DNA from: a bacterium
GTDB lineage: Bacteria; Patescibacteriota; Dojkabacteria; SC72
Assembly: GCA_021107795.1 (NCBI GenBank)
Contig: JAIOSB010000029.1
Location: 1 to 43,039 of the forward strand
Length of the DNA stretch: 43,039 nt
Direction: 5' to 3'
Shown here: positions 1-27,380 of the stretch, one piece after another
Layout: every line of letters starts with the position of its first letter
How positions within the stretch are numbered: the first letter of the stretch is position 1
The notes under the pieces: model-generated
Database searches by the model: none
What the model saw: the letters and a program-made list of their open reading frames with translations, nothing else
Told to the model about the DNA's origin: nothing
Position numbers and translations under genes: made by a program

Positions 1-3000
1 CAATTTGACCAGTATCTGTTATAACCATTCTCTCACTACTATTTGTATCAAATCTAATAAAGTCCTCATCTCCTGTCTCTTCCACTTGAATACCAGTATC
101 TGAATCACCATCCCACATAGAAGTTTCACCACCAACATTTGTCCAACTCAATGCTCCACTACCATCTGTAATTAGAGCCTGCCCACTTGTACCATCTGCG
201 GTTGGGAAGGTATAAGCATCATTAAATCGAATAGCTCCAGTTGCAACAATCCTCATTCTCTCCAATGAGTTTGTTTGGAAGACAATATCTGTATTAACTG
301 CATACCCTCCTGTTCTCATTATAAATTCGTTTGTTCCACCATCATACACAATCCCTCCACCCTCACTTAGTCCACCATCTCCGTTATAGAAACTAAGAAC
401 AGCATCATTAGCAACCCCATTAGCTTCAATAATTGCTGAAGTATTTCCTGCCCCTATACTTTTAACATGAAAATTCCCATCTCTATTTGTAGTACCCACT
501 GTTAAATTATTAGCAACATGTACTTCTCCTCCCATAATCCAAGTCCTGTCATTGACAGAATCAAAAGCTAAACCAGCCATACTAGGATCAGACCCCGGTA
601 AATCAGATGGATTATCAATATTAAAGTAAGCACTTACATATCCATTATCCATCCAATGTAATTCTCCGGAAGCATTAATAAACATCCTCTCAACACCAAG
701 AGTATCAAATCTAATGATATCTTCATCTCCAGTCTCTTCTACTTGAATACCAGTATCACTATCTCCATCCCAAAGAGCAGTAGCACTACTAGAACCCCAA
801 CTCAATGCTCCACCACCGTTAGTCTGTAATACCTGTCCGCTAGTCCCATCTACTGTAGGAAAAGTGTAAGCACTGTTAAAGGTAATCGCACCACTACCAG
901 TAGCATTAGCAAGATGTATACGAGTAACTCCATTAGTCCTAATATCCAAAACATGATTGTCGTTCGTACCAAATACTCCTCCCTGAGAAAACATGTTCCC
1001 GTGCTGTCTCCAAGCACTTGTTCCTCCACTAGCAATCTCAGTCCAAGCATCATCTAATGTCCCAGTTTTAATCCACAAGTGAGTACCTACTACAGCCAAA
1101 GAACCAAGAGGAGCTGGGTAACCTGCTGTTGGCGCTTCATCAATAGAAACAAGATCAAAGTAACTACCCGGTCCGTTCTGAATCCTCACCACTTGATGTG
1201 GATTGAGAGCCTGATTACTAACTATATGAAGGGGAACTGCTGGAGTAGTAGTACCAATACCAACCCTGTCATCACTAGTAAGTCTCATAACTTCTGAACC
1301 ATTAATATTGGAAATAATTGGAGATGTATCAGATGTAAATATATGTAAAGCATTAGCAACCCATCCACTCGCATAACCATTACTACTCATATTCTTCACA
1401 ATTCCAGCGTCCCCCGTAGCACCACCATGCATCACTAAACCTTCTGCCATATCTCCTGACCTAGTTTCTAAGAAAGTATCATAACCATCACCCTCTATAC
1501 CTATAACAAGATCTCCAACAGAAGTCATAATCTGATCACCACTACTGACAATCAAATTACCCATCGTAGTATTGCTTGTTCCAATAGCCACATTACCATT
1601 ACTACCTATTATCATTCTCTCACTACCAAGTGTATCAAATCGAATCATATCTTCATCACCTGTTTCTTCTACTTGAATACCTGTATCACCATCTGTATCC
1701 CAAAGAGAGGTAGCACCACTACCAGTGGATATCCAACTCAATGCTCCACTACCATCTGTTGCCAACACCTGATTGTTTGTACCATCTACATTTGGAAAAC
1801 TGTAAGCATTTGCAAATCGGATACTACCCTGAGTACCTGTTCCACTTGCAACACCTGGTATCAAATTAATATTTCCAGAAGTACCATCTACTACACTACC
1901 TGTTTCAATATTAAGAGCCGTAGTCCCTATTGCCCCTGTTTTATCTTTAGTTGCAAGGCTCAGACCTGCATCAGCTACAATCTCCAATGCACCGTCCTGT
2001 TGATCAATAATCATATCACCATTACTATTCTGTATTGTAAACACTCCAGCATTGACGTAAATAACACGCTCCACCGCTCCACCATCAAACATAAGCATAG
2101 CACCATCATCTATAGTCACATTATCACCACCAGTTGTAGTAGACAAAAGAGTACCAGTTCTACTCCAAGGTCCACCAGTAGTGATTGCACCATCTACATA
2201 TCCCTTATCAACCAAAGATCGATCTACAAAATTAGCAGAGTAATCTTTATCATAAGTAGCTCCTTGAAAGGTAGTATTATCCATCGATATTTCGAACAAA
2301 TTACTCTGGAGCGCTAACGAGGTTTCATTACCAACCCCTCCAACTGTATTTCCCCTAAGAGTTAAAGTTCCTGAATTGTTACCTACAATCATTGCCGCTT
2401 GGAATGTTGTGTTATTTTGTGCATACATCTGAAAAAACCAAGGTTCTATATCAAAACGACTCCTACTTGATACATCATCAGCTATAATTGCAGAAGCATC
2501 ATCATTAATTTCATAATCAATAAAACCATTATGGAAATTTAAACCAAACCCATTAGCGTCAACAACTCTAGCTCCAGTAAGTGTTCCATCAGCAGTATAA
2601 ATGTTGTCACCACTAGCTGTATTCCAACTCAATGCTCCACTACCATCAGTTTGTAAAACTTGCCCGCTAGTCCCATCAGCATTTGGTAAAGTCCAAACCA
2701 AATCAGCTACAATACTATCTGGTGCTTTAAATCCAACATAGTTGGTACCATTAGCAACTATCTCATTAAACACTATTGGTCTTGTAACTCCACCACCTGA
2801 AGGACGTAAACTGAGACGTCCATCACCTATAACCACAGCGTTTGCTTTTATTCCCACATTTCCCATTGTATCTACACCAAGTAACACGTTATCATTTTGA
2901 TCAACAATCATTGAGTCAAATCCAAAATCGTCATGTCCAAAAGCAATACTTGAACCATCAGTTGTGTTCTCTGACATAATTGTACGAGGAGTAGGAGAGT

Positions 3001-5266
3001 CTGTAGCAACATGTAGTAGTTCCCCAGGAGTATTCGTCCCTATTCCCAACCTATTAGTAGTATCATCCCAGAAAAGATTAGCATTATCCTCTGTTACTTC
3101 ACTACCCGAAGTGAAAAGAAGTGAACCTTCTGTGTATACTGCAGGGGTATCTGTAAGAGCTAGGAAAGTTGAAGCTCCCGTATTGTTAACAACATAAGTC
3201 CCTACAGCATTAAGAGCATGAATCAACGAAGTAGACGTCTCTCCAACACCAATGGTAGAACCAATCGTTCCTGTTGCACTATAAATCTCTCCTCCACCGT
3301 TTAAGAAATCATCTCCCATAGAACTCCCTGTCTGAGAGAGGTGTAAACTATCATTCACATCAGCAAATCTTACTTGCCCACCAAGCATCTCTATGACTGC
3401 TCCATTTGTTTGAAAAAGGATTGCAGCAGAGCCTATACCAGAAGTATTTGTCGCAAACAGATTAATTAAAACATCATCTGAATCATTATTCTCGTAAGCA
3501 CCAATAAAAGCTCTACGTGTAGGAGATGTAGACATAGGATTGGAATTGGCAGCATCTATTGCTACGAATTCCTGTAACCCTGCACCCAATGTTGAACCAG
3601 TATAGTTACCTAACATAACATATCCCATACCACCCAACACCGGATCAAGACCGTTTGGATCAATAGCCAATCCAGCTGTCGCTATTGTTGGATTCGTATT
3701 ATCTATCCATCCTCCATGACCAACTGTAAAATCTTGCATAATCACCATATCGTTATATGGTTGCAGTCTCAGTGTCCCATCCGTCCCACCAGCAGTAGAG
3801 ATTGTTAAATTACCATCCCCGGAATCTGATCTAACCAAACTCCCATCAGAAAGTGTAGTAGTAGCTCCCACTACAAAAGCTCCGTCAGTATAGACATTCC
3901 CCTCCACCCCTAACTGATCCTGCACAAACATATCCCCTATATCCAACACAAACCCTGCATTCTCCAATGTCTCTACTTGGTCTATCCCCACTATCACCCC
4001 TTTATCATCCTCAAAAACACCATTCGTACCATCTTCCCAAAAACCACCACCACTACCCGCACCTACCAATGTACCGTTCCAGTAGAGACTCCCTCCAACA
4101 TTGTAAAGTTTGTCAGTAGTAACAGCAGGCTCAGCAATTTGACCTAAAGAAACCGACCCATCATTATTAACCACAAACAAATCAGCAGTCGTACTATTAC
4201 CAAAAGTGATAAGAGCACCACTACCAAACTGCCTACCCCACAACAAAGCGTCTCCCGTTGCGTATGCTGAAAGAGTACCAGTTTCAAAGTACGACTTCTC
4301 CCCAATACATTCACAAGGATCCCCATCACTATCAGCAGTTCCTGTGGTAGAGGTATTAGTCCCTGCACAAGTTCCCGCTACACCACCAACCGTCATAGTA
4401 CACGCCTCACCAGTTACAATCTCACAACCATTCCCACTACCTCCCGTATCAATATCTGCATCTCCATCATTATCATCAAAGTCAATATTCCCAGATTGAC
4501 AACCACAAACCCCACTCCCACCTGAACAGTAGGTAGTCCAAGCATGTCCTCCACAACTAGCAGTACCATGATATTGAGATTCACAACCATTTCCTACAGT
4601 AGCTGTCGAAGAATCACAATCGAAGTGATCAGATGTACTCCCTGATGTTCCTGTACCACTCACCGAATCATACCTACAAGTACATGCTCCAGAGGCTCCA
4701 GAACAACCAAGGTAATCTCCTTGACTAGAAATACCACAACTATCTCCATCATGGATTTCACAACTCTGATTATCAGCATCACAATCGTGGTAATCTGTAT
4801 GACAACTTCCAGAACACTCATATGAGTTTGCTTGATATGCAAATGTACTCGCTTTACAAATGGTATTCCTATGCCAAGTCACACACTGAGGATCACGATT
4901 ACACCAGAAATTACCACTATTATCACAATATGGAGAACCACCATCTACAGCAGTGTAACAATCCACTACATAACCACCATTAGTTAAGCCATTGTACTGA
5001 GTATTAGATGCTGCACTATCTGAACCAGGAGCAACCATAGTGGACATGTCATAACACTGAGAAGTACCACTATCATCTCCACAAATGAGAAGTGATCCTG
5101 GACAACTCTGTCCAGGGAAATTTGATTCATCAGCCGCAGGACAAGAATTAGGATTCTCCTGCCAATTTACAGCAGCATAAGCTAATTTAACACCAAGAGT
5201 CCAACTACCAACCAAGATAATTGATACTATTAATACTATTCTTAAATTGTTTCGTTTAATTCTCAT
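1..5266 (-). CDS. Giant secreted modular fibre/adhesin-like protein (Cys-rich N-terminus, repeated fibre modules), partial, runs off left edge
   Basis: Manual reverse-strand translation from ATG at 5266-5264 (MRIKRNNLRIVLIVSIILVGSWTLGVKLAYAAVNWQENPNSCPAADESNFPGQSC...) stays open to base 1 (>=1755 aa). Signal-peptide-like N-terminus. Contains modules shared with the next two CDSs (FLALTDTPAVYTEGSLLFTSGSEVTEDNANLFWDDTTNRLGIGT; NADGTSGQVLQTDGSGALSW; DYSANFVDRSLVDKGYVD). Absent from the ORF track because no stop lies in the window. Confidence 0.9.
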   Translation of the reverse strand, partial: MRIKRNNLRIVLIVSIILVGSWTLGVKLAYAAVNWQENPNSCPAADESNFPGQSCPGSLLICGDDSGTSQCYDMSTMVAPGSDSAASNTQYNGLTNGGYVVDCYTAVDGGSPYCDNSGNFWCNRDPQCVTWHRNTICKASTFAYQANSYECSGSCHTDYHDCDADNQSCEIHDGDSCGISSQGDYLGCSGASGACTCRYDSVSGTGTSGSTSDHFDCDSSTATVGNGCESQYHGTASCGGHAWTTYCSGGSGVCGCQSGNIDFDDNDGDADIDTGGSGNGCEIVTGEACTMTVGGVAGTCAGTNTSTTGTADSDGDPCECIGEKSYFETGTLSAYATGDALLWGRQFGSGALITFGNSTTADLFVVNNDGSVSLGQIAEPAVTTDKLYNVGGSLYWNGTLVGAGSGGGFWEDGTNGVFEDDKGVIVGIDQVETLENAGFVLDIGDMFVQDQLGVEGNVYTDGAFVVGATTTLSDGSLVRSDSGDGNLTISTAGGTDGTLRLQPYNDMVIMQDFTVGHGGWIDNTNPTIATAGLAIDPNGLDPVLGGMGYVMLGNYTGSTLGAGLQEFVAIDAANSNPMSTSPTRRAFIGAYENNDSDDVLINLFATNTSGIGSAAILFQTNGAVIEMLGGQVRFADVNDSLHLSQTGSSMGDDFLNGGGEIYSATGTIGSTIGVGETSTSLIHALNAVGTYVVNNTGASTFLALTDTPAVYTEGSLLFTSGSEVTEDNANLFWDDTTNRLGIGTNTPGELLHVATDSPTPRTIMSENTTDGSSIAFGHDDFGFDSMIVDQNDNVLLGVDTMGNVGIKANAVVIGDGRLSLRPSGGGVTRPIVFNEIVANGTNYVGFKAPDSIVADLVWTLPNADGTSGQVLQTDGSGALSWNTASGDNIYTADGTLTGARVVDANGFGLNFHNGFIDYEINDDASAIIADDVSSRSRFDIEPWFFQMYAQNNTTFQAAMIVGNNSGTLTLRGNTVGGVGNETSLALQSNLFEISMDNTTFQGATYDKDYSANFVDRSLVDKGYVDGAITTGGPWSRTGTLLSTTTGGDNVTIDDGAMLMFDGGAVERVIYVNAGVFTIQNSNGDMIIDQQDGALEIVADAGLSLATKDKTGAIGTTALNIETGSVVDGTSGNINLIPGVASGTGTQGSIRFANAYSFPNVDGTNNQVLATDGSGALSWISTGSGATSLWDTDGDTGIQVEETGDEDMIRFDTLGSERMIIGSNGNVAIGTSNTTMGNLIVSSGDQIMTSVGDLVIGIEGDGYDTFLETRSGDMAEGLVMHGGATGDAGIVKNMSSNGYASGWVANALHIFTSDTSPIISNINGSEVMRLTSDDRVGIGTTTPAVPLHIVSNQALNPHQVVRIQNGPGSYFDLVSIDEAPTAGYPAPLGSLAVVGTHLWIKTGTLDDAWTEIASGGTSAWRQHGNMFSQGGVFGTNDNHVLDIRTNGVTRIHLANATGSGAITFNSAYTFPTVDGTSGQVLQTNGGGALSWGSSSATALWDGDSDTGIQVEETGDEDIIRFDTLGVERMFINASGELHWMDNGYVSAYFNIDNPSDLPGSDPSMAGLAFDSVNDRTWIMGGEVHVANNLTVGTTNRDGNFHVKSIGAGNTSAIIEANGVANDAVLSFYNGDGGLSEGGGIVYDGGTNEFIMRTGGYAVNTDIVFQTNSLERMRIVATGAIRFNDAYTFPTADGTSGQALITDGSGALSWTNVGGETSMWDGDSDTGIQVEETGDEDFIRFDTNSSERMVITDTGQI

Positions 5267-5270
5267 ACTT

Positions 5271-8200
5271 TTATTGACAACAACTTAGAGGTAACGTAGT
5301 CTCACAACTTACTAACCAACCCTTTCCACCACCAACACTATCATATGCCCAGTAAGCTCCAAGTTGAGCAGTACCACTATTAGTCCAACCACTACAGTCA
5401 TTTGAATTAGAGGTATACCCTGGAGGCCCTTCAGCTATCCAAGCATCAGCAGAAAAACCAGCAATACTGTGTTCTGCTATAAATTGTATTATCTCATCAG
5501 TTCTACAAAAGTGACTACCAGGAAAAGCCGTATTACAAATATCGTTAGCTGCTTGATAACCGACATAGCCACCACTACTAAATGACCCACTATATGAAGC
5601 TGCTGTTTTACTAATACTAGTTGCACCACCTGTCACTTCTGAAGCCAAAGCCAGTCGTTCCCAGCCAGTATTGGTTCCATCTCCGGAGGCTTTGATATAC
5701 ATATCTCCATTAGTGCCATCTACAGTCAAATCACCAATGGATCCAGCTACTGAAGATTCGGGGGTAGCATCTACCCTAAAGAATTGGAAGTCTCCAGCAG
5801 TATTTGCAAGAGTAAGAAGGGCAGTAGCATTAACAGCATTTGAATTAATATGGAGAGTAGTTGTAGGAGCATTCGTCCCAATCCCTAGCATATCACCAGT
5901 ATCATCCCAAAAGAAATTCGCATTATCTTCTGTGACTGTACTACCTGATGTAAACAGTAATGACCCAACAGTATATGCCATAGGGGTGTCTGTAAGGGCT
6001 AAGAAAGTTGAAGATCCCGTCACACTATCTACATACCCTTTATCCACCAAAGACCTATCTACAAAATTCGCAGAATAATCACCTGAATAGACTACTCCAA
6101 CTTGTGCTGCTCCAGCCCTATTATCAGTAAATCTAAATGAATTTATACTATCATCTAAATGAAAACTAAAATTAGGAGCATCAAAAGAGAAATCTCTTCC
6201 AGCTTTTACTTCATATTTAACTGACGCTCCATCATCATCTATTTCATAAGAAGGCATATCCATAAAGAAAGAATTACCACCTCCAACTTGATTGTCAAGT
6301 GCTCCTTGCCATGTTAATGCACCAATATGGTCATCAACATATTCTCTATCCACCAAGGATCTAGCTGTAAAATTAGCTGAATAATCATCTCCATATACAA
6401 CTCCAGTATTATTTATACCATCTTCAAACACCATTTGACCTCCTAAGTGAAGCATGTTAGCGCTTACACCATTATTATACTGAAGATGAAAACCACTTGG
6501 ACTATGTAGCATTTCTGTCCAAGTTGTTCCATCTGTTATTCTAGTTTCAATTTGATCTGGACGCATCTCAATATGAGATGATCCAGGACCATCATTTGTT
6601 TCTAACAAGATAGTATTCTCACTTGTCCCTGTAAAAGTTAACGCATTACCATTAGAAGTAATGGTTCTGTCGCCCGTCAGTGTTCCGTCTATTCCATAGA
6701 TATTTCCAGAAGAAACAGCCCCATCAACATACCCTTTATCAACCAAAGATCTATTTGTAAATCCTGTTGAGTAATCGGCTGCATATTCAAACCCCTTTGT
6801 TATAACTCTATGATCTGTAATGATTGAATCTACATTATTAACATCTATATCAAAATTAGAAGTAGTATTAGTCACATACCAGAATAATGAATCTTGATGT
6901 CCCATTTCGAATTGACCAGCACCAGATGCTGCAAGCTTTAATATTGCTCCATCATATTCTATTTCAGCATCTGTCCCATAGAAACCATATGCACCTAAAT
7001 TATTAAACCATAAGTGATTTCCGTTACCATCAATACTTCTGCTTCCAGTAAGTGTCCCATCAGTATTATAAATATTAACAACTCCATCCGTTATAGCGTC
7101 ATCCACATACCCTTTATCAACTAGTGTTCGATCTGTGAAGTTAGCAGAATAGTCAGCGGCATAAAGAGCCCCTCTATTACTCAAAAGATCAGTGATAATG
7201 ACACTATCCCCTACTTCAAGACTAACTCTATTCGCAGGCCCTCCTGGATCATGATAAAGGAGAGTTGAAACGTGATTATAAACTATTCCAGAATCAATCA
7301 ACCCATCAGTCATGTTAAATTCTACTTGATTCCCCCCTGTTCCAGAAATCAATCTATTCTCAGATATTGTTCCATCATCTGTGTAGATATTGCTCATGGT
7401 AGCACTAGTAGCTACCTGCACCCAACCTGTATTAGTTCCATCTCCTGTATTCTTAATATACATATCTCCACTTGTTCCATCTACTACTAAGTCCCCTACT
7501 GAACCTGTTACAAAACTCTCTGGTGTAGCATCTGTTCTGAACATTTGGATATCTCCAGCTATATTTTCTAATGTTAATATTGCTGTTGTATTTGCTCCAT
7601 TACTATTTATATGAAGTACTGTGGAAGGGGCAATGGTTCCAATTCCTACTTCTCCACCCATAATACAGAGGGAGTTAGCTTGGTTACAATTTGTTCCAGT
7701 TTGATCATTCAGTGCAACAGCAACAACATTATTTGCTCCCGCTTCAATTCCGTATCCTATTGCTGTCGACATCATCCCAGACGCAGTTGTTTCTATACCC
7801 ATTGCAGTTGAAGAAAATCCTGAAGCAATTGTATCACTCCCTATTGCTGTTGAATAAAATCCTGAAGCAGTTGTATTATGACCTACAGCAAATGAATGAC
7901 TACCAATATTACCATCATCCCACTGAACACCATCTATTCGTCCTGCTCTAAATGCTGACTTTCTTGGATACCACATCATTCTTGATCCTGCTCCTAAATC
8001 CGGTTCTATCCAACCAGCACCATGAGTTCCTGTAGCTAGAATCGCTCCATCACCACCAATTTCTAATGCTGTTCTTGGAGTACTTGTCCCTATCCCCACA
8101 TTACCTCCATCAAGTATTACAAAAGATGTTACCCCATTGTCTTGTACCTCAAAAAGACTCCCTGTTCCTAATTGATTTATTATCAACGCTGGAGTTACAT

Positions 8201-8744
8201 CGTTAGAAGTCATTTGGATATTACCTGCAGAGTTAAAAACTACATTACCTGAGTTCTCTGTCTCTACCTGTATATCCTCACTATCTGCATACAATCCCCC
8301 TGCCCTATGTGCATATGGATTACTTGAAAGTGGTATTCTAGGTGTAGCTTCTCCATCTACCCCTACCTTCACTCCTATGTAATATTCATCTGTAAAGTCC
8401 ATATATGCAGGGAACACTACACAGGTAGCTAACCTCTGTCCAAAGATTCCACTAGCATCTGGATCTATCTGCATACAATTCCCCACTGCTTGATCATATA
8501 TCTCTGTCCAAAGTAATGGTCCAGTAGATGATGGAACATCCGTAGGTGCTCCATTACTAAGATGGTTGTAGATTGAGAATTGTATGGTAGTAGGAGTTGT
8601 AATTGGTGTTCCTACATTGTCTTTAAGTTTACCTTGGTAGTTAAGATTCTCGGGGATGGCTGCACTAACCGAAGTTGTAAAAAACAGCAAAAAAGCTAGA
8701 ACCAATAGGGTTATTCCTTTGTTAGATGTAGGCAGTTTGTTCAT
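5271..8744 (-). CDS. Giant secreted modular fibre/adhesin-like protein with YadA-head-like repeats and a Cys-rich C-terminal lectin-like module
   Basis: 1157-aa ORF with signal peptide (MNKLPTSNKGITLLVLAFLLFFTTSVSA). N-terminal domain IPENLNYQGKLKDNVGTPIT...; AxGxxTxASGxxSxAxG repeats; four DYSxNFxxRSLVDKGYVD modules; C-terminus ANDICNTAFPGSHFCRTDEIIQF...SGWTNSGTAQLGAYWAYDS..GWLVSCETTLPLSCCQ. Confidence 0.92.
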   Translation of the reverse strand: MNKLPTSNKGITLLVLAFLLFFTTSVSAAIPENLNYQGKLKDNVGTPITTPTTIQFSIYNHLSNGAPTDVPSSTGPLLWTEIYDQAVGNCMQIDPDASGIFGQRLATCVVFPAYMDFTDEYYIGVKVGVDGEATPRIPLSSNPYAHRAGGLYADSEDIQVETENSGNVVFNSAGNIQMTSNDVTPALIINQLGTGSLFEVQDNGVTSFVILDGGNVGIGTSTPRTALEIGGDGAILATGTHGAGWIEPDLGAGSRMMWYPRKSAFRAGRIDGVQWDDGNIGSHSFAVGHNTTASGFYSTAIGSDTIASGFSSTAMGIETTASGMMSTAIGYGIEAGANNVVAVALNDQTGTNCNQANSLCIMGGEVGIGTIAPSTVLHINSNGANTTAILTLENIAGDIQMFRTDATPESFVTGSVGDLVVDGTSGDMYIKNTGDGTNTGWVQVATSATMSNIYTDDGTISENRLISGTGGNQVEFNMTDGLIDSGIVYNHVSTLLYHDPGGPANRVSLEVGDSVIITDLLSNRGALYAADYSANFTDRTLVDKGYVDDAITDGVVNIYNTDGTLTGSRSIDGNGNHLWFNNLGAYGFYGTDAEIEYDGAILKLAASGAGQFEMGHQDSLFWYVTNTTSNFDIDVNNVDSIITDHRVITKGFEYAADYSTGFTNRSLVDKGYVDGAVSSGNIYGIDGTLTGDRTITSNGNALTFTGTSENTILLETNDGPGSSHIEMRPDQIETRITDGTTWTEMLHSPSGFHLQYNNGVSANMLHLGGQMVFEDGINNTGVVYGDDYSANFTARSLVDREYVDDHIGALTWQGALDNQVGGGNSFFMDMPSYEIDDDGASVKYEVKAGRDFSFDAPNFSFHLDDSINSFRFTDNRAGAAQVGVVYSGDYSANFVDRSLVDKGYVDSVTGSSTFLALTDTPMAYTVGSLLFTSGSTVTEDNANFFWDDTGDMLGIGTNAPTTTLHINSNAVNATALLTLANTAGDFQFFRVDATPESSVAGSIGDLTVDGTNGDMYIKASGDGTNTGWERLALASEVTGGATSISKTAASYSGSFSSGGYVGYQAANDICNTAFPGSHFCRTDEIIQFIAEHSIAGFSADAWIAEGPPGYTSNSNDCSGWTNSGTAQLGAYWAYDSVGGGKGWLVSCETTLPLSCCQ
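7720..7905 (-). repeat. YadA-head-like repeat block inside CDS 5271..8744
   Basis: FAVGHNTTASGFYSTAIGSDTIASGFSSTAMGIETTASGMMSTAIGYGIEAGANN. Confidence 0.85.
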
Positions 8745-8793
8745 CTATTCTTTTATTTAAGCATGCTAACTAAATAGCACTATACTATACACC

Positions 8794-8806
8794 TTATACA
8801 ATACCA
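8794..8806 (-). promoter_or_regulatory. Candidate promoter element TGGTATTGTATAA upstream of second giant-fibre transcription unit
   Basis: Identical 13-mer to 17326-17338, located in the 187-bp gap between CDS 8932..13584 and CDS 5271..8744. Confidence 0.45.
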
Positions 8807-8931
8807 CTAAACAGATACTAGATGCAAGAGAATATATACTAGGAAAGAATTTGCGTAACATTACTCTGTTGGATAAAAAAGTTTATAGGGAACGCCTGAA
8901 CTATGTATAATAAAAACTACTGCTCACATGC

Positions 8932-11900
8932 CTACTCTTCACACCACCTTTCAATCCCAAGTACGCACAAATCTTCTTTCATCAGTACATTATCTGACTT
9001 TAATGCTTCATTCTCAGATTTCAATAAATCAACCTCTGTATCATTATCATCAAGCCTAGTTTCTACACCATCAACCCTATCAACCAAATCATTGAGTAAA
9101 CTAACGAACTCTTCGTTATCACCCAAATCTCCTAGGCTATCTATCTTTATGTGCAACTCTTTGATTGCTTCAATAAGGATTGGAGCTATTCTTGAATACG
9201 ACACTCCCCAATATTCTCCGTCTGTATCTACAATCTCCGGGAAGTATCCTTCTACCTCCTGAGCAATTACCCCTATTTCTGTGTTATCTGTACCTATAAA
9301 GTTATACCTCACTCCTCTCATATTCAGAACGCTTTCTAAAGCATTATCTATAGTAATTACATTCTCTTTAAGACGAATATCTGAATTTGCCGTCCAAGAT
9401 GTTGCATCTTGGGCTATATAAACTCCATTGTCATTATCATTATCTGTGATATATAACCTGTCAGAATTATCACCATCATTGTAAATATTCCACTGTACAG
9501 TACCATTTTCAGAAAGATTAATTTCTGCGTCGTTATCTGCCGCTGAATCAATTGTTAAGATAGGAGCAGAGGCTTCAAGTTCTAGAATACTTGCTGGACT
9601 TACAGTGCCAACACCAACCATGCCATCATCACCTTGTGGAAAAATCAAAAATCTATTATTACTTGGGGCAAAGGCTTGAGCAGAAGCTGAATATCCCCAA
9701 ACAAAAGTTCCATCCCCTGAAGTTGGCTGCATATTGCTTCCACCAGTAAAGGCGTAATTACCGGCAACGTCCGAAGAATAACCAATTGCCATTGAATATC
9801 TTCCTGAAGCCCTAGAACCACTACCAAATGTGGACGAGTATCTTCCAAGGGTTGATGTATTATAACCAGTCGCAAAAGTATAATCTTCAGAAGCAGTTGT
9901 TCTACCTCCTATTGCAGTTGAGTAATCTCCCGAAGCAGCTGTGTCGTAACCCATTGCAACTGAATAATTACCAATATTGGTTTCATTCCAGTGAGTACCA
10001 GTTACCCGTCCTACTCTAAATGCCGATTTCTGTGGGTACCACACCATTCTTGTCCCTGCTCCCAGATCTGGTTCTGTCCAACCTGAGCCAAAAGTTCCTG
10101 TTGCTAGAATAGCTCCATCACCACTAATTTCTAATGCTGTTCTTGGAGTATTTGTATTAATACCTACATTATCTGTACCTGCATCTACAAAGAACAAATT
10201 TGCTTCTGTATCACCTTCAACTCTAAAATCAACATCCGAGCTGTATTCATTAATTACAACTGAATCACTAACCCCTTCTATAAGGCTCAACATCCTCACT
10301 CCACCTGCCCTTATTTCAAGACTATCCTCATCTTCAAAATCAATATATGTATCTAGATCAGCCCGACGAACAATCTGAGATCCAACATATAAAGATTTAC
10401 CAATTTCTATATATTGATCAACATATAGAGATCCACTTCCAGAAATATGAGTTGGTATTGCATCACCAACTATAACCTCTCCTCTACTTTTTATAGACAT
10501 TCTAATATCATCTTTTGCTACTTCAGTTGAATCAGCGTTATTATCTGTAGCAAATATCAAATCCCCTCTACCATAAGTGTCTGTTCTATTAAAGAATATA
10601 CCTCCTTTTGCAGGGCTTACACTCAAATCCCCTGACACAGCAAATAATAAACCTACTTCATCATCATTATTCCCATCTGAATCATGGATTAAAATTCTCC
10701 CTTCGTCATGATCTCCCGAGACTTGGAATTTGTGAATGGGAGCTGTTGCTCCAATCCCAACTCTACCATTAGTAGCATTTACAAAAAACGCATGTTCATC
10801 AGTATCACTTTCTACTCTAAAACTTGTAAAATCGTTACCGTCTTGGTTTATTACAACCTCGCTGTGATAACCAAGATATAAACTCTTTCTTCCATATAAA
10901 TCAATGAAACTCAAGCTTGCTCCGTCAGCAATCATTCGCCATTGGTCTGCACTATCATCTCCTTGGTCTGCCCAAATTGTTAAAGTGGCAGTTTCTCCTT
11001 GTGCACCAACAATATGAACATTTTCATCCGGAGTTACAGTCCCTATCCCCAATCTCTTATTAGTATCATCCCAGAAGAAGTTTGTATTGTCTTCTGTTAC
11101 TTCACTACCTGATGTAAATAGAACTGATCCCGCAGTGTATGCTGCTGGTGTATCTGTAAGAGCTAGGAATGTTGTAGCTCCACTATCAGCAACCCAACTC
11201 AAAGCTCCACTACCATCAGTTTCTAAAACCTGACCATTTGTACCATCAGCATTTGGTAAAGTCCAAACCACATTACTTGCAACAGTAGCAGGTGCTATAA
11301 ATCCTACATAATTTAATCCACCTGTATTACCCTCATTAAGACGAATACTTCCACCAATAGAGCCACTATTTGCACTCACTCTCATTACTCCTCCAGCTAA
11401 AGCCACAATCTCACTTGGTAAAACAGAAAGATAAGAACTAGAGAGATCATCAGTAGACACAAAATGAATGGCGTTACTTCCACCCAAATCAGCTGCTATC
11501 AATAGATCATTATTTGCCTGATTAGTTCCATCATCTAGAAACATTCTCCCCAAGCTTGTACTATCAAAAGCAATTCCATAAGTTTTATCAATATTCACGT
11601 TTCCTCCGGCAATATGCAAACGATCCTCCACACTGGTAGTACCAATAGCTATATCTCCACCATTAAAATAAGTATCACCATTTCCATTAATTTTAACTGT
11701 ATTTACATTATTATCCTTAATATTCAATGAATTCTCAGAGTTCCCATTAACTTGAATAGATACAGCAACATCCCCCCCAACAGATTCATAAACCTGAAGA
11801 GGATTTTCCCAAGCATCTATTGGATTAATAAGAACTTGTCCTGCATTTACATAAATATTTCCAGCAACTTCTAAACTTTCTCCTGGAGTACTCGTCCCTA

Positions 11901-13584
11901 TCCCCAACCTGTTAGTAGCATCATCCCAAAAAAGATTAGCATTGTCTTCTGTCACTGCACTACCTGAAGTGAAGAGAAGAGAACCAGCTGTGTATGCTGG
12001 TGGTGTGTCTGTAAGAGCTAGGAAGGTTGAAGCTCCTGAACCTGTAGCTAATTGCTCCCAACCTGTGTTAGTTCCAGTTCCTGTATTCTTAATATACATA
12101 TCTCCACTTGTTCCATCTACTGCTAAATCACCGACTGATCCTGTGATTGCAGATTCTGGTGTTGCATCTGTTCTAAATACTTGAAAATCTCCTGCTGTGT
12201 TTTCTAATGTTAATATTGCTGTTGTATTAGTTCCATTACTATCTATATGAAGTGCGGTTAAGGGAGCTATAGTTCCAATACCTACTTCTCCACCCATAAC
12301 ACAAAGCGAGTTGGCCTGGTTACAGTTTGTCCCTGTCATATTATCCAATCCAATAGCAATAGTATAAGTTGAACTTGCTTCAATCCCACTCCCCATTGCA
12401 GTTGCCCAATCTCCCGAAGCAATTGTACCCTGACCTAACGCAGTTGCGAAATGCCCCGAAGCAGTTGTGCCATAACCCATTGCAGTTGCCCCATCATGTG
12501 AGGCGGTAGTGTTATGCCCTATCGCAATTGAACCATCCATTGTGGAAGTTGCTCCACTACCCATTGCGATGGAACCATTACCTGAAGATGTCGTATTAGA
12601 ACCCATTGCAATTGAACCAGTGTCTGTAGCTTGGGTACCACTTCCCATTGCAACTGCCGCTGTACCTGAAGCAGTCGTTTCTTCACCTACTGCGAAGGCA
12701 TAATTTCCTGAAGCGATTGTACTATAACCCATTGCCACCGAATAATCACCAATCTCCCCATGATCCCACTGAGTACCATCTACATATCCTGCCCTAAACG
12801 CCGCCCTTCTTGGATACCACATCATTCTTGCCCCTTCGCCTAAATCTGGCTCTGTCCAACCTTCATCATAAATCCCAGTTGCCAAAAATGCTCCATCAAG
12901 CTCTAACGATGTTCTTGGTGTTGATGTCCCTATCCCTACATTACCTCCATCAAGTATTACAAAAGATGTTACCCCATTATCTTGTACTTCAAAAAGATTC
13001 CCTGTTCCTAATTGATTTATTATCAACGCTGGAGTTACATCATTAGAAGTCATCTGGACATTACCTGCAGAATTAAAAACTACATTACCTGAGTTCTCTG
13101 TCTCTACCTGTATATCCTCACTATCTGCATACAAACCTCCTGCTCTATGCGCGTACGGATTACTCGAGAGAGGAATCCTAGGTGTAGCTTCCCCATCTAC
13201 TCCTACCTTCACCCCTATATAATACTCATCTGTAAAGTCCATATATGCAGGAAACGAAACACAAGTACCTAATCTCTGTCCAAAGATTCCACTATCATCC
13301 GGATCTATCTGTATACAATTTCCTGCCCCTTGATCATATATCTCTGTCCAAAGTAGTGGTCCAGTAGATGATGGAATATCACTAGGTGCTCCATTACTAA
13401 GATGGTTGTAAATTGAGAACTGTATAGTAGTTAGACCTGTAATTGGTGTCCCTACATTGTCTTTAAGTTTACCTTGGTAGTTGAGATTCTCTGGGATTGA
13501 TGCACTGATTGAAGATATAGACAAAAAAAGGAAGATGACTGTTAGTAAAACTATTCTTTTTTTATATTTAGGCAATTTGTACAT
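8932..13584 (-). CDS. Giant secreted fibre/adhesin-like protein with YadA-head-like repeats and C-terminal Peptidase_S74 intramolecular chaperone
   Basis: 1550-aa ORF with signal peptide. C-terminal SDIRLKENVITIDNALESVLNMRGVRYNFIGTDNTEIGVIAQEVEGYFPEIVDTDGEYWGVSYSRIAPILIEAIKEL is a classic S74 pattern, followed by a coiled coil. Two blocks of about 14-residue YadA-head-type repeats. Confidence 0.93.
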   Translation of the reverse strand: MYKLPKYKKRIVLLTVIFLFLSISSISASIPENLNYQGKLKDNVGTPITGLTTIQFSIYNHLSNGAPSDIPSSTGPLLWTEIYDQGAGNCIQIDPDDSGIFGQRLGTCVSFPAYMDFTDEYYIGVKVGVDGEATPRIPLSSNPYAHRAGGLYADSEDIQVETENSGNVVFNSAGNVQMTSNDVTPALIINQLGTGNLFEVQDNGVTSFVILDGGNVGIGTSTPRTSLELDGAFLATGIYDEGWTEPDLGEGARMMWYPRRAAFRAGYVDGTQWDHGEIGDYSVAMGYSTIASGNYAFAVGEETTASGTAAVAMGSGTQATDTGSIAMGSNTTSSGNGSIAMGSGATSTMDGSIAIGHNTTASHDGATAMGYGTTASGHFATALGQGTIASGDWATAMGSGIEASSTYTIAIGLDNMTGTNCNQANSLCVMGGEVGIGTIAPLTALHIDSNGTNTTAILTLENTAGDFQVFRTDATPESAITGSVGDLAVDGTSGDMYIKNTGTGTNTGWEQLATGSGASTFLALTDTPPAYTAGSLLFTSGSAVTEDNANLFWDDATNRLGIGTSTPGESLEVAGNIYVNAGQVLINPIDAWENPLQVYESVGGDVAVSIQVNGNSENSLNIKDNNVNTVKINGNGDTYFNGGDIAIGTTSVEDRLHIAGGNVNIDKTYGIAFDSTSLGRMFLDDGTNQANNDLLIAADLGGSNAIHFVSTDDLSSSYLSVLPSEIVALAGGVMRVSANSGSIGGSIRLNEGNTGGLNYVGFIAPATVASNVVWTLPNADGTNGQVLETDGSGALSWVADSGATTFLALTDTPAAYTAGSVLFTSGSEVTEDNTNFFWDDTNKRLGIGTVTPDENVHIVGAQGETATLTIWADQGDDSADQWRMIADGASLSFIDLYGRKSLYLGYHSEVVINQDGNDFTSFRVESDTDEHAFFVNATNGRVGIGATAPIHKFQVSGDHDEGRILIHDSDGNNDDEVGLLFAVSGDLSVSPAKGGIFFNRTDTYGRGDLIFATDNNADSTEVAKDDIRMSIKSRGEVIVGDAIPTHISGSGSLYVDQYIEIGKSLYVGSQIVRRADLDTYIDFEDEDSLEIRAGGVRMLSLIEGVSDSVVINEYSSDVDFRVEGDTEANLFFVDAGTDNVGINTNTPRTALEISGDGAILATGTFGSGWTEPDLGAGTRMVWYPQKSAFRVGRVTGTHWNETNIGNYSVAMGYDTAASGDYSTAIGGRTTASEDYTFATGYNTSTLGRYSSTFGSGSRASGRYSMAIGYSSDVAGNYAFTGGSNMQPTSGDGTFVWGYSASAQAFAPSNNRFLIFPQGDDGMVGVGTVSPASILELEASAPILTIDSAADNDAEINLSENGTVQWNIYNDGDNSDRLYITDNDNDNGVYIAQDATSWTANSDIRLKENVITIDNALESVLNMRGVRYNFIGTDNTEIGVIAQEVEGYFPEIVDTDGEYWGVSYSRIAPILIEAIKELHIKIDSLGDLGDNEEFVSLLNDLVDRVDGVETRLDDNDTEVDLLKSENEALKSDNVLMKEDLCVLGIERWCEE
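9740..9972 (-). repeat. Second YadA-head-like repeat block inside CDS 8932..13584
   Basis: SVAMGYDTAASGDYSTAIGGRTTASEDYTFATGYNTSTLGRYSSTFGSGSRASGRYSMAIGYSSDVAGNYAFTGG. Confidence 0.85.
12355..12750 (-). repeat. YadA-head-like tandem repeats (about 42-nt / 14-aa units) inside CDS 8932..13584
   Basis: Protein shows VAMGYSTIASGNYAFAVGEETTASGTAAVAMGSGTQATDTGSIAMGSNTTSSGNGSIAMGSGATSTMDGSIAIGHNTTASHDGATAMGYGTTASGHFATALGQGTIASGDWATAMGSG. Confidence 0.88.
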
Positions 13585-13591
13585 CTATATT

Positions 13592-14305
13592 TCAAAAACT
13601 CTGATCAAGAAAATTAAAATCTTGCTGTTTTGTAAACACAAATTCAAAAGTCTCTTCTTCAATACTCTCCCCTTCTTGCCAATAGTAGATGATTGTTGTT
13701 TGATATGTTTCTCCATCCCTATCTACCTCTCTATTAATTTCCACACTTATCGGACCACTCAATCCCTCATCAGAATGACTATCTCTCCAACTATTCTTTA
13801 GTGCTAAATATTCTTCTTCAGACCACTCCTCTTTTTGTTCTTCTGCTAGAAACTGATAAAGTATTCTATACTTACGAAATCTTTCTGCTTCTTCGACCTG
13901 TCGTAAGAAAACCAATACACTACTCTCAATACCAATCTCGATATTCTCCCTCTTCTTAACAGGAATCTTTACCTCTTCAAAGAAATCTTTTCCAACTAGT
14001 ACCAAAGTGTCATCATTCCATACTTCAAGACTAAACTCTCCTTGAGCATCTGTTAATATATCTAAATCTCCTTCAATCAAACTATTCACTTCTACTCCCT
14101 CAAGGGGTTCTTCTGTATCCAAATCAAATACTCTACCTTCTACTTCTATTCTCTCCGCAGGGATTTCTCTGTTGAGAAACTTCACAAAAGAAAATATCAA
14201 TAGCCCTACTACCCCAAGGAGAAGGATTATACGAAGAAGTTTTATACTCCAAATGTTTAAGAATATTCCCTTCAACCTAGTTTTCTTCTCTCTAATCTTC
14301 TTCAT
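13592..14305 (-). CDS. Membrane-anchored protein with carboxypeptidase-regulatory-like (CarbopepD_reg) domain
   Basis: 237 aa. N-terminal TM (LLRIILLLGVVGLLIFSFVKFL), then VEGRVFDLDTEEPLEGVEVNSLIEGDLDILTDAQGEFSLEVW (Ig-like CarbopepD_reg pattern). Start overlaps the upstream stop (ATGA). Confidence 0.8.
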   Translation of the reverse strand: MKKIREKKTRLKGIFLNIWSIKLLRIILLLGVVGLLIFSFVKFLNREIPAERIEVEGRVFDLDTEEPLEGVEVNSLIEGDLDILTDAQGEFSLEVWNDDTLVLVGKDFFEEVKIPVKKRENIEIGIESSVLVFLRQVEEAERFRKYRILYQFLAEEQKEEWSEEEYLALKNSWRDSHSDEGLSGPISVEINREVDRDGETYQTTIIYYWQEGESIEEETFEFVFTKQQDFNFLDQSF

Positions 14306-16524
14306 TTCCTTTTCTTGTTTTTAAGTTTACTCCATTTTCTATATTGCCAAAGGTTGATGATAATGAGGATAACGACAATTATCCAGAACCACCAAAGTAT
14401 TAATTGCTTACGAATAATCTCAAACTCTCCTACCCATTTCTCATCCACAACTTCCTTACCACCTTTCATAGAAACTGCATATACATCATGTATTCCTTCT
14501 GGAAGAATATTGGCTGCTCGAATTTGCCATTTACCCTCTTCATCTGATGTTGTCATCAAAATGAGGGGGTCGGATTTGACCATTATAGCTACTAGCATAT
14601 TTGGGTCTGCTTCCCCAGAGAAGATAATTTCATCTCCTTCTATCCTTATCCTCACTGAAATATCCCCTACTCCTACTGATTGCCCATTAATCTCAGAGAG
14701 TGTTACAGACTCCAAACCAGAAGATGATGGCAACACTATGCTTGCACTTGTACAAATCAGTTCCCCTATTCTCTGAATCTCCTCTTGTGGTAGTTCACTA
14801 ATTTCTGGACACTCTTCACACTCCTCACACTCTTCACAAGTCGGACAAGTCTCACAAGTTGGACACTCTTCTGATTCAGTAGTTCCAATAGCTAGACCGT
14901 AGGAGACTTGGTCCATAGCGTTGTTCGCTATATCCCTCACATTTATTATCACCTCTAGAGCATAATAAAGATCAAAATCATCATCCGGATTGATTGTAAT
15001 GAAGTAGTCAGAAGAATCTCCAGAGTATGTAAATGGAGGTACACCAGATCGTGTGTATGTTATACCATTGACTATGATAGATAGGCTATCTATATCAACC
15101 CCTGTTCCCTCATCTGTACAATGGAAAGTAATATCATCGGAGACTGCCATAGAGACCGCGTTTCTCTCTGGAGTATACAAACTACATTCAGGAGCAACTG
15201 TATCTGCGGTTGTAAAAGAGTAAGAAGTATTTAGTGTATTGATAGTAGGTAGTCCATAGTCATCAACAGTGATACTCACATTGACAAGCGTATTCTCTGG
15301 GAAGTCTGTATCTGGATTAATACTAATACCGTAGTCGAAAACATTACCGTAGTCATTGTTACCCAATACTGTGACTATCATTTCTGGATCTGCATTGGTG
15401 TAAACCTCAGTTCCCCAACCAGCAGCCGAAATGGTTACACTTAGGGTAGAAATATCAACACCGGTACCGGGATAACCGCCTGGTACTGCTATATCTCTCA
15501 CATTGAAGTTGACATTGGTCATTGTAGAAACACCATTCTGTCCGTTGTTAGGATTACGATTGTAAACAGCAGGAGCATCATTATCATCCTCTACAGTAAA
15601 TGTGTACGTATGGTTGGATAGAGTATGAACAGTAGGTACTCCCAAGTCAGAGATGGTAATATCAACTGTCATCACTTCTGTGTAGTAGAAGTTGTTTGCA
15701 GGGTTGATAACTACATCACAGTAATCCACTCTGTTAGCATTTGTAGTATGACAATTGTATGATACCCCCCCACTTACTTCAGTGTAATTCACTGTCCCCC
15801 AGTTAGCACCAGAGACAGTCACATCTAATGTGGAAATATCAACACCAGCATCACCGTCATTAAGTCTAAACTCAATATTATCATTCGCTGGAACATTGGT
15901 AGCACCATCATCAGGATCACGATCACTTACAGTAGGAGTATCACTGTCAGCTAGCAATGAGACTGTATAGTTATCAGCCTGCTCAAGGATATCATTCCCT
16001 GTACCATATTCAGCCAAATTACAATCAGTCGTTATACCTGGAGTAAAATCATAGTCCCAATCATAGTTACCGCTATCAGAGAGAACAGTATAGTAGAAAT
16101 ATGCGAAAGTACCAGTACCGTTGTAAGAGTTCCCAGGATTGTTGTAAGAACCCAATTTAATCTGGGTAGTAGAAACAATATTGTTGGTATAGTTATTGTA
16201 CTGAGAACCAGTATAGATAGAGGTGGCTGCAGTAGAACAGTTACTCTGGACAATCTCAACTAAGGTATTGTCATAGTCAATGATCAAATCAGCACCACCA
16301 GTATTATGACCATCTGTATCTAGTACAACATTAGCTCGAACACATCTACCTCTATAGAACTCATTATTCAATACACCTTGACCTTGAGGAATATCAAAAG
16401 TAAAAGATGTTGCAGCTTGTACTACCGAAGGAATTGCAAAAGCTATTCCAACGAGTAGAAAGATTTTAATTACCTTTTTGAACTGAATATTTTTCATAAT
16501 TCCTTCTCTTATTTTAATCTCCAT
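14302..16524 (-). CDS. Secreted, C-terminally membrane-anchored protein with cohesin-like N-terminal domain, Ig-like repeats and (CxxC)n stretch
   Basis: 740 aa with signal peptide. VRANVVLDTDGHNTGGADLIIDYDNTLVEIV...GTGTFAYFYYTVLS is cohesin-like. Repeats VSDRDPDDGATNVPANDNIEFRLNDGDAGVDISTLDVTVSG and YNRNPNNGQNGVSTMTNVNFNVRD. C-terminal TM LILWWFWIIVVILIIINLWQYRKW plus a basic tail. Confidence 0.8.
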   Translation of the reverse strand: MEIKIREGIMKNIQFKKVIKIFLLVGIAFAIPSVVQAATSFTFDIPQGQGVLNNEFYRGRCVRANVVLDTDGHNTGGADLIIDYDNTLVEIVQSNCSTAATSIYTGSQYNNYTNNIVSTTQIKLGSYNNPGNSYNGTGTFAYFYYTVLSDSGNYDWDYDFTPGITTDCNLAEYGTGNDILEQADNYTVSLLADSDTPTVSDRDPDDGATNVPANDNIEFRLNDGDAGVDISTLDVTVSGANWGTVNYTEVSGGVSYNCHTTNANRVDYCDVVINPANNFYYTEVMTVDITISDLGVPTVHTLSNHTYTFTVEDDNDAPAVYNRNPNNGQNGVSTMTNVNFNVRDIAVPGGYPGTGVDISTLSVTISAAGWGTEVYTNADPEMIVTVLGNNDYGNVFDYGISINPDTDFPENTLVNVSITVDDYGLPTINTLNTSYSFTTADTVAPECSLYTPERNAVSMAVSDDITFHCTDEGTGVDIDSLSIIVNGITYTRSGVPPFTYSGDSSDYFITINPDDDFDLYYALEVIINVRDIANNAMDQVSYGLAIGTTESEECPTCETCPTCEECEECEECPEISELPQEEIQRIGELICTSASIVLPSSSGLESVTLSEINGQSVGVGDISVRIRIEGDEIIFSGEADPNMLVAIMVKSDPLILMTTSDEEGKWQIRAANILPEGIHDVYAVSMKGGKEVVDEKWVGEFEIIRKQLILWWFWIIVVILIIINLWQYRKWSKLKNKKRK
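14808..14870 (-). repeat. 9-bp tandem repeats encoding (C-x-x)7 stretch CPTCETCPTCEECEECEEC
   Basis: Directly visible ctcttcaca/ctcctcaca/ctcttcaca/agtcggaca/agtctcaca/agttggaca units on the plus strand. Confidence 0.85.
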
Positions 16525-17290
16525 TTATTCCATAATTATTAATTAATTTCGTCATATCCAAAGAATTGACCTGATGATTTTCATCAACATCGGCTCTTTC
16601 ATCAGAAACACCTCCATCATTTTCTCCCCAATGAGATACTAGATATGTAGCATCCAAAGAGTTCACTTGATTATCCCCATCAGGAGTAGTTACACCCGTA
16701 TACACATCACCACACAAGAGAGGATCAGCACCAACTAGAGTGAAATCTAAGATATTGGTTCCTTCTGCTAAGGATTGGGCTGGTAACATCTTCTTAAGGT
16801 GAGCATAGCCTTTCACTACTACATCATAGACACCCGGTGGGATACCAGTTAATTGAAGATTAGAATATTCTCCATCATTATTGGTAGCAACAGCTGGATA
16901 TGTGTTTATGGCGGTTGTCTCTCCTACATTCCTAACTTCGATAATTGCTAGAGTCGAATTATTCCCAACCGCAGGAAGACGTTTTTCAGGAATTACAGTG
17001 AAGTCAATAAAGACATCACCTTCATCACCGTATAAATATCCGTGTAAGATATTAAAGTTTGCACTATCAGACTCACCAATAGCTAAATCTCCAACTTGTT
17101 GATTCTCTATTTCATAGCCCGCAGAGGATGAGTCTTCACCACCACTATTCCCAGAGTTATCAGGGTCAATTGTGTAATTGGTAGAAGAAGTTGCTCTAAC
17201 TTCACTTTGTATGAAGACCCCTAATAAGAGGACCATTATAGGTGATAGAGCGTATATCATTATTTTTTTAGTTATAGACAGTTTTTCCAT
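16514..17290 (-). CDS. Secreted protein with C-terminal dockerin type I-like domain
   Basis: Likely start at Met25 of the listed ORF (MEKLSITKKIMIYALSPIMVLLLGVFIQSEVRA = signal peptide). C-terminus GDVYTGVTTPDGDNQVNSLDATYLVSHWGENDGGVSDERADVDENHQVNSLDMTKLINNYG has two dockerin-like Ca-binding loops. Overlaps the next gene by 11 nt. Confidence 0.82.
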   Translation of the reverse strand: MEKLSITKKIMIYALSPIMVLLLGVFIQSEVRATSSTNYTIDPDNSGNSGGEDSSSAGYEIENQQVGDLAIGESDSANFNILHGYLYGDEGDVFIDFTVIPEKRLPAVGNNSTLAIIEVRNVGETTAINTYPAVATNNDGEYSNLQLTGIPPGVYDVVVKGYAHLKKMLPAQSLAEGTNILDFTLVGADPLLCGDVYTGVTTPDGDNQVNSLDATYLVSHWGENDGGVSDERADVDENHQVNSLDMTKLINNYGINGD

Positions 17291-26956: not shown

Positions 26957-26968
26957 ATAACTCCCTTC

Positions 26969-27316: not shown

Positions 27317-27380
27317 AAATAGATAATTATAAATAATTTATATATTGGATTTTATCAAACATCACTAATTATATCAATAT

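What the first reader, a model, noticed from the sequence alone, without database searches (positions are those of the whole stretch)
14302..17290. Adjacent cohesin-like and dockerin-like genes heading a giant-fibre operon
Seen: CDS 16514..17290 ends in a duplicated dockerin-type loop pair (DVDENHQVNSLD fits positions 1/3/5/9/12; PDGDNQVNSLD is partial, with T at position 1). The next gene, overlapping by 11 nt, has a signal peptide, a cohesin-like N-terminal domain, Ig-like repeats and a C-terminal TM anchor. Known: cohesin-dockerin pairs scaffold extracellular complexes. Inference: a minimal membrane-anchored cohesin/dockerin assembly in a reduced CPR-type cell, possibly organising the giant fibres encoded downstream.
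Basis: partly seen in the sequence, partly recalled or inferred. Interest (0 to 1): 0.72.

Follow-up and report, generated by a model that had tools for sequence, protein, structure and literature searches.

The report
Paired cohesin and X-dockerin surface genes
Two overlapping genes in a tiny Patescibacteria-type genome encode a plug (X-dockerin) and its probable socket (a membrane-anchored cohesin), and this pair recurs side by side across many relatives, which points to a conserved way of building structures on the cell surface rather than to cellulose digestion.

Summary
The 258-aa gene (16514-17290, -) is an X-module plus dockerin: Pfam Dockerin_1 is 31.4 bits (cut-off 22.9), and its AlphaFold model's ten best PDB matches are all type II X-dockerins of cellulosomes. 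The 740-aa gene, overlapping by 11 nt, carries a cohesin domain: isolated, it scores 25.8 bits (cut-off 24.1), and its model (pLDDT 92.8) has cohesins as all 50 top PDB hits. The genome has one dockerin and one such cohesin.

In 86 genomes of the same class, this cohesin and the X-dockerin occur (strong matches) in the same 21 genomes and 22 loci; 65 have neither. In all 20 further loci read, the X-dockerin gene lies directly upstream of the cohesin gene (gap -65 to +57 nt). Elsewhere in the phylum the pair expands into arrays with Coh...Doc adaptor proteins.

Best reading: a non-cellulosomal, type-II-like anchoring pair on the cell surface. That it organises the giant fibres is not shown: the order doc-coh-carbR-fibre was seen in three genomes of the order only, and no dockerin was found on a fibre. 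Binding itself could not be tested. New variant of a known kind.

The parts
16514..17290 (-). X-dockerin gene (258 aa): N-terminal hydrophobic segment, about 55-residue linker, X module, C-terminal dockerin
   Evidence: PF00404 31.4 bits; Foldseek top 10 all XDoc type II structures; A5 profile vs 2b59_B E 9.9e-9
17207..17263 (-). hydrophobic segment (residues 10-28), signal peptide or signal anchor; VRA/TSS is a plausible cleavage site
   Evidence: hydropathy scan; cleavage is inference
17021..17236 (-). N-terminal segment related to the N-terminus of NCBIfam 'CPR-type pilus protein PamT' (partial, far below cut-off)
   Evidence: 36.3 bits vs cut-off 240; low AF2 confidence between residues 35 and 88
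16733..17017 (-). X module, CarboxypepD/transthyretin-like beta-sandwich (about residues 92-186)
   Evidence: AF2 pLDDT mostly above 90; matches X modules of CipA/ScaA XDoc
16529..16711 (-). dockerin domain (residues 194-254) with two helices and two calcium loops
16652..16708 (-). calcium loop 1, lengthened (D195..D213); positions D/E1, D5, N9, D12 conserved in 22-23 of 23 relatives
16556..16591 (-). calcium loop 2, canonical DVDENHQVNSLD (residues 234-245)
14302..16524 (-). membrane-anchored cohesin protein (740 aa): hydrophobic N-terminus, cohesin, Ig-like repeats, Cys-rich linker, C-terminal TM and basic tail
15940..16410 (-). cohesin domain
   Evidence: PF00963 25.8 bits > 24.1; AF2 pLDDT 92.8, pTM 0.86; 50 of 50 top PDB matches are cohesins
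15595..15948 (-). Ig-like domain Big_5 (best of two stretches)
   Evidence: E 4e-7, 31.1 bits > 23.6
14347..14403 (-). C-terminal transmembrane anchor (residues 708-726) followed by a basic tail
   Evidence: hydropathy
13592..14305 (-). third gene of the conserved trio ('carbR'): N-terminal TM plus CarboxypepD_reg-like domain (237 aa); such domains are fused into the cohesin protein itself in other families
   Evidence: CarbopepD_reg_2 24.0 bits, below cut-off 32.2; orthologues in L009 and G029, counterpart in G079; fusions
8932..13584 (-). giant fibre 1 (1550 aa) downstream: YadA head repeats, C-terminal S74 chaperone; link to the pair not shown
5271..8744 (-). giant fibre 2 (1157 aa)
   Evidence: YadA_head 26 bits; Bdello_MAT_N 16 bits, cut-off 60
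2..5266 (-). giant fibre 3 (at least 1755 aa, runs off the contig)

Best explanation
The two genes encode a dedicated, non-cellulosomal cohesin-dockerin pair of type-II-like (X-dockerin) build. The 740-aa protein is exported, held in the membrane by its C-terminal helix, and carries a cohesin at its outer end on an Ig-like stalk. The 258-aa protein is exported and ends in an X-dockerin that plugs into that cohesin, with Ca2+ bound in the dockerin loops. The X-dockerin has no enzyme or recognised cargo domain, so it most likely works as a fastener: its N-terminal part, or whatever that part joins, is clamped to the membrane-anchored receptor. Shown here: domains, predicted folds, overlap, one copy of each in the genome, conserved pairing. 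Inferred: that the two bind each other (about 0.8), that binding needs Ca2+ (about 0.75), and that the job is surface assembly or attachment rather than digestion (about 0.7).
For: Dockerin HMM over cut-off and unique in the genome. Cohesin domain over cut-off when isolated. Folds: 50/50 cohesins and 10/10 XDoc; the X-dockerin profile also matches solved XDoc chains by sequence, E 9.9e-9 to 3.7e-7, covering X module and dockerin. A cohesin HMM made from three sequences found 19 further class genomes with strong matches, and all 20 loci read there have an X-dockerin gene directly upstream on the same strand; 14 of 20 pairs overlap. Both partners occur in the same 21 of 86 genomes and 22 loci (1/C(86,21) = 1.7e-20, not corrected for kinship). 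G041 has two separate pairs. Trees of the partners correlate, Mantel r 0.69. Ca2+ ligand positions conserved in 22-23 of 23 for most positions. In L009 (43% identical cohesin) the trio stays together although the dockerin gene is inverted. Coh-X-Doc and Coh...Doc proteins in other lineages. Established knowledge: type II pairs attach cellulosomes to the cell surface (PMC12484212).
Against: No direct evidence of binding; co-folding could not be run. Cohesin membership of the window's domain passes by only 1.7 bits and is missed in the full-length protein. Many relatives in the same family have a cohesin-domain protein and no dockerin match, so a cohesin domain does not by itself imply a dockerin partner. 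In several relatives the X-dockerin's N-terminus lacks an evident cleavage site and may be a membrane anchor, which would change the geometry. The tree correlation and the co-occurrence probability are not corrected for species relatedness.
Confidence: 0.76

Rival explanations
1. A cis clasp: both proteins stay in the membrane of one cell (the X-dockerin by an uncleaved N-terminal helix), and the pair ties two envelope proteins together without any third partner. This is a variant of the best explanation that shares its binding step.
For: The family X-dockerins are short (198-335 aa) with an N-terminal hydrophobic segment and mostly no cargo domain; several N-termini have no evident cleavage site.
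Against: In the window, G029, L009 and G079 the segment is followed by a plausible signal-peptidase site (VRA, VRA, TKA, VSA; read from the sequence); two-ended Coh...Doc proteins elsewhere suggest chains rather than closed clasps.
Confidence: 0.25
2. The pair anchors or organises the giant trimeric fibres encoded downstream.
For: Same strand and short gaps between doc, coh, carbR and fibre 1; the order doc-coh-carbR-fibre is kept in G029 and in G079 from another family of the order. A faint cohesin match lies on fibre 2 (6816-7007, 13.4 bits, E 0.029, far below the cut-off of 24.1). For Bdellovibrio MAT fibres the surface element they bind is still unknown (PMC10769870).
Against: No giant fibre was seen next to the pair in the other class loci read; no dockerin on a fibre and no cohesin over cut-off; fibres vary in number and sequence between G000 and G029 while the trio is constant.
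Confidence: 0.17
3. Cohesin and dockerin folds are present but do not bind each other; the cohesin is a generic stalk or adhesion domain, as may be the case for the cohesin of animal TMEM132, and the dockerin a Ca2+-stabilised cap.
For: Cohesin-domain proteins without a dockerin in the genome are common in family f1; TMEM132 has cohesin plus Ig domains plus TM without a known dockerin (PMC6030884).
Against: The window-type cohesin and the X-dockerin co-occur in the same 21 of 86 genomes, always as neighbours in the loci read.
Confidence: 0.12
4. A reduced cellulosome for digesting polysaccharide.
For: Same domain types as cellulosomal anchoring pairs.
Against: Only one dockerin and one such cohesin in the genome; the dockerin protein has no recognised catalytic or carbohydrate-binding domain.
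Confidence: 0.03

Closest known systems
Type II X-dockerin / cohesin anchoring complexes of cellulosomes (PDB 2B59, 5G5D with CipA XDoc; 4WI0, 4U3S with ScaA XDoc; 5M0Y, 5K39)
   Same: X module plus C-terminal dockerin, cohesin on a cell-surface protein; best sequence-profile and fold matches for the dockerin protein; type II cohesins among the best fold matches
   Different: 12-17% identity; no scaffoldin or enzymes; receptor held by a transmembrane helix, not SLH or sortase; first calcium loop lengthened; the two genes overlap as one pair
Archaeoglobus fulgidus non-cellulosomal cohesin and dockerin (cohesin PDB 2XDH)
   Same: small non-cellulolytic cohesin-dockerin set; its cohesin is among the fold matches; archaeal pairs bind specifically (as cited in PMC9012536)
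   Different: archaeal; no class-wide X-dockerin plus cohesin operon is described in the papers read here
ANME archaea dockerin/cohesin proteins (PMC9012536)
   Same: non-cellulosomal, discussed for extracellular assembly and syntrophy; proteins with a dockerin and several cohesins
   Different: large variable sets carrying ABC-transporter binding proteins; here a fixed one-to-one pair without cargo
TMEM132 (cohesin, three Ig domains, TM)
   Same: cohesin followed by Ig-like domains and a TM anchor (PMC6030884)
   Different: animal; no dockerin partner known
Southlakia epibionticum SEML1_0315, an essential dockerin protein of a Patescibacterium (PMC10633639)
   Same: dockerin surface protein in the same broad group, essential for growth on the host
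   Different: orthology and a neighbouring cohesin were not tested; the authors suggest glycan targeting, not a cohesin partner

Membership tests
Dockerin (PF00404) | Pfam Dockerin_1 over the gathering score | tested here: met
   31.4 bits > 22.9
Dockerin (PF00404) | duplicated calcium loop plus helix with D/N ligands at 1, 3, 5, 9, 12 | tested here: met
   loop 2 fully canonical; loop 1 lengthened but positions 1, 5, 9, 12 kept, position 3 unclear; two helices in the model
Dockerin (PF00404) | Ca2+-dependent binding to a cohesin | not testable with these tools
   needs protein work or co-folding of two chains
Cohesin (PF00963) | Pfam Cohesin over the gathering score | tested here: met
   isolated domain 25.8 > 24.1; orthologue 30.7; full-length window protein missed
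Cohesin (PF00963) | cohesin beta-sandwich fold | tested here: met
   AF2 pLDDT 92.8; top 50 PDB matches all cohesins, best E 2.3e-7, TM about 0.5-0.75
Type II X-dockerin/cohesin pair | X module directly before the dockerin | tested here: met
   sequence profile and fold
Type II X-dockerin/cohesin pair | partner cohesin of type II on a cell-surface anchor | tested here: inconclusive
   TM-anchored cohesin present, but fold matches mix type I, II and III cohesins
Cellulosome | scaffoldin with several cohesins | tested here: not met
   one cohesin of this type in the genome
Cellulosome | dockerin-bearing polysaccharide-degrading enzymes | tested here: not met
   single dockerin gene, no recognised catalytic domain
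CPR-type pilus protein PamT (NF058579) | score over the curated cut-off | tested here: not met
   36.3 vs 240 bits, N-terminal 72 residues only

The most novel reading that the evidence does not exclude
Patescibacteria build host- or surface-attachment structures by cohesin-dockerin chains: a TM-anchored cohesin receives an X-dockerin, and in some lineages Coh...Doc adaptor proteins extend the chain outwards to adhesin-like proteins (beta-helix, fn3, Ig). The window would then be the minimal two-part version, and essential dockerins such as that of Southlakia would work through such partners.
Probability: 0.3. Interest if true: 0.85.

Novelty: new variant of a known kind. Interest (0 to 1): 0.62.

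Why it matters
Cohesin-dockerin bonds are among the strongest known protein plugs and are mainly studied in cellulose digestion. Here they form a strictly conserved gene pair in tiny, probably host-dependent cells that carry no cellulosome, with chain-forming versions in related lineages. A dockerin protein is already known to be essential for epibiotic growth of one Patescibacterium, with no partner named (PMC10633639). The pair gives a concrete, testable candidate for how such cells fasten surface structures, and two small domains suited to binding tests.

Tried and rejected
PF00963 on the whole genome and on the full-length 740-aa protein missed the cohesin; isolating the domain and using the orthologue resolved this. 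phmmer of the single cohesin against PDB found nothing; the family profile reached cellulosomal cohesins only at E 0.08-0.5, so the fold and the pairing carry the argument. PamT 'CPR pilus' membership rejected: partial hits far below cut-off throughout the class. Viral contigs: no relative of the X-dockerin. Promoter scan: no excess over shuffled sequence; terminators 8 against 4.6 +/- 2.1, so neither settles the operon limits. Papers: no description of cohesin-dockerin pairs in Patescibacteria found in the open-access library searched; subscription papers and preprints are not covered, and Peer et al. 2009 was not held. Co-folding of the two chains was not possible: the structure tool takes single proteins as encoded.
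Full report
WHAT IS THERE. The window is contig 4 of a 667-kb, 30-contig genome, 98.65% complete. On the minus strand a run of co-directional genes reads: X-dockerin (17290-16514), cohesin protein (16524-14302), a small TM protein with a CarboxypepD-like domain, 'carbR' (14305-13592), and three giant fibres (13584-8932, 8744-5271, 5266-2). The first two overlap by 11 nt and the next two by 4 nt. A 187-nt gap separates fibres 1 and 2, so whether all six form one transcript is open; pattern scans do not decide it.

THE DOCKERIN PROTEIN. Pfam Dockerin_1 scores 31.4 bits (cut-off 22.9) at residues 204-251, the only dockerin in the genome. Loop 2 (DVDENHQVNSLD) is canonical. Both loops carry S-L at positions 10-11, which in classical dockerins contribute to partner recognition (own knowledge), so the dockerin is internally near-symmetric. 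In front lies an X module: the family profile matches the X-dockerin chains 2b59_B (E 9.9e-9), 5g5d, 4wi0, 4u3s and 5k39 over X module and dockerin together, and the AlphaFold model (mostly confident from residue 90 on) has such structures as its ten best PDB matches. The first 90 residues are a hydrophobic helix and a low-confidence linker with a weak, partial match to an NCBIfam 'CPR-type pilus' model, well below its cut-off.

THE COHESIN PROTEIN. The full-length protein misses PF00963, but the isolated domain (15940-16410) scores 25.8 bits against a cut-off of 24.1 and the same-genus orthologue 30.7. The model of this domain (21-sequence alignment, pLDDT 92.8, pTM 0.86) has cohesins as its 50 best PDB matches, of types I, II and III and including the Archaeoglobus cohesin. 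Big_5 Ig-like domains follow, then a Cys-rich linker and a C-terminal TM helix with a basic tail.

IS THE PAIRING REAL? A cohesin profile built from three sequences only (window, G029, L009) was run on 86 genomes of the same class. Besides the window and G029, 20 loci with strong matches were read out; in 20 of 20 the gene directly upstream on the same strand is an X-dockerin protein, gap -65 to +57 nt, 14 of 20 overlapping (gene starts are mechanical, so single gaps are approximate). Pfam Dockerin_1, which owes nothing to this work, rings next to the cohesin in 12 of the 22 loci, window included. In the reverse direction, the X-dockerin profile finds strong matches (E <= 1e-47) in exactly the same 21 genomes and 22 loci; 65 genomes have neither (weak extras: XDoc in G052:C36 and G072:C22, cohesin in G079:C13 and G059:C56). 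That profile was seeded from these loci, so finding them again is no surprise; what is informative is that almost no X-dockerin turns up without the cohesin. Drawing the same 21 of 86 genomes by chance has probability 1.7e-20, though related genomes are not independent. G041 carries two separate pairs. Trees of the two partners correlate (Mantel r 0.69; 0.60 without the window's clade), without correction for species relatedness. In several other families CarboxypepD_reg domains are fused into the cohesin protein itself, which suggests that the separate carbR gene works with it.

BEYOND THE CLASS. The enlarged cohesin profile finds matches in 71 of 380 genomes sampled across the phylum. Of 20 such loci read, 17 have a dockerin in the same or a nearby gene. 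Several encode proteins with a cohesin at one end and a dockerin at the other: L150 (374 and 338 aa, both Coh-X-Doc, then a 501-aa cohesin protein with a C-terminal TM), L141 (542 aa), L144 and L146 (about 630 aa; L144 with fn3 and Ig modules between), L152. Such two-ended proteins could link head to tail; this is inference from domain order. The large dockerin proteins scanned at these loci carry beta-helix, TIG, fn3 and Ig modules rather than recognised glycosidases.

HOW IT MOST LIKELY WORKS. An exported X-dockerin plugs, with Ca2+, into a membrane-anchored cohesin on an Ig-like stalk. As the X-dockerin carries no recognised enzyme or cargo domain and the genome has no other dockerin, a cellulosome-like role is unlikely; a fastener in surface assembly or attachment fits best. 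Shown: domains, predicted folds, overlap, uniqueness, conserved pairing. Inferred: binding, Ca2+ dependence and role. In some relatives the X-dockerin's N-terminus may be an uncleaved anchor, so a same-cell clasp remains possible.

THE GIANT FIBRES. Fibre 1 has YadA head repeats (95 bits) and an S74 chaperone (52 bits); fibre 2 has a weak trace of the Bdellovibrio MAT N-terminal model (16 bits, cut-off 60). But the fibres differ between G000 and G029 while the trio is constant, no giant fibre was seen beside the pair in the other class loci read, and the only trace of cohesin or dockerin on a fibre is a sub-threshold cohesin match on fibre 2 (13.4 bits). The idea that the pair organises the fibres remains possible, not supported.

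CAUTIONS. Cohesin-domain proteins without any dockerin match in the genome are common in the window's own family: about 240 aa, signal peptide-cohesin-PSTG-TM, next to glycosyltransferases in the three loci read. A cohesin domain alone is therefore no proof of a dockerin partner; the strict pairing is the argument here. The literature check covers open-access papers only.

NOVELTY. Each domain is a member of a known family by curated threshold and fold; the combination (overlapping X-dockerin and TM-anchored cohesin genes, lengthened first loop, strict one-to-one co-occurrence, chain-like arrays in relatives) was not found described. I rate it a new variant of a known kind.

Noticed in passing
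L150 (6758-7882, 7887-8903), L141 (8242-9870), L144 (1093-2985), L146 (677-2563), L152 (5039-7570): Two-ended proteins with a cohesin at one end and a dockerin (some with X module) at the other, in tandem with further cohesin genes: possible head-to-tail surface chains in other Patescibacteria lineages.
   Followed up: partly
window 26423-28075 (-) and 18127-20646 (-): Five small TM, pilin-like ORFs in a row and a TraD-like ATPase; resembles the essential pilin-bearing T4SS cluster reported for Southlakia (PMC10633639).
   Followed up: no
window 2-13584 (-): Three giant fibres, two with YadA head repeats and fibre 1 with an S74 chaperone, recalling the MAT fibres of predatory Bdellovibrio; number and sequence vary between G000 and G029, and G029 has a phage-antirepressor-like gene between two of them (L007 3498-4337).
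   Followed up: partly
L096 5049-5747, L100 4824-5561, L102 5119-5832 and similar loci of family f1: A second cohesin class: about 240-aa signal peptide-cohesin-PSTG-TM proteins next to a GT4 glycosyltransferase, in genomes mostly without a dockerin.
   Followed up: partly
window 35053-37383 and 37566-39905 (-): Two similar neighbouring surface proteins; the first has a laminin-G/ConA-like lectin domain (83.5 bits), both have an N-terminal and a possible C-terminal TM.
   Followed up: no
window 17480-17947 (+); L077 8095-8595; L081 4086-4910: A small TM protein with a conserved motif (DE.PTIATIVD...FY.DA.N.DKL) lies near the pair in several families; function unknown.
   Followed up: no
L084 788-2101 (G062:C100): One cohesin copy is split by a stop or frameshift, unlike its sister in G063; pseudogene or assembly error.
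   Followed up: no
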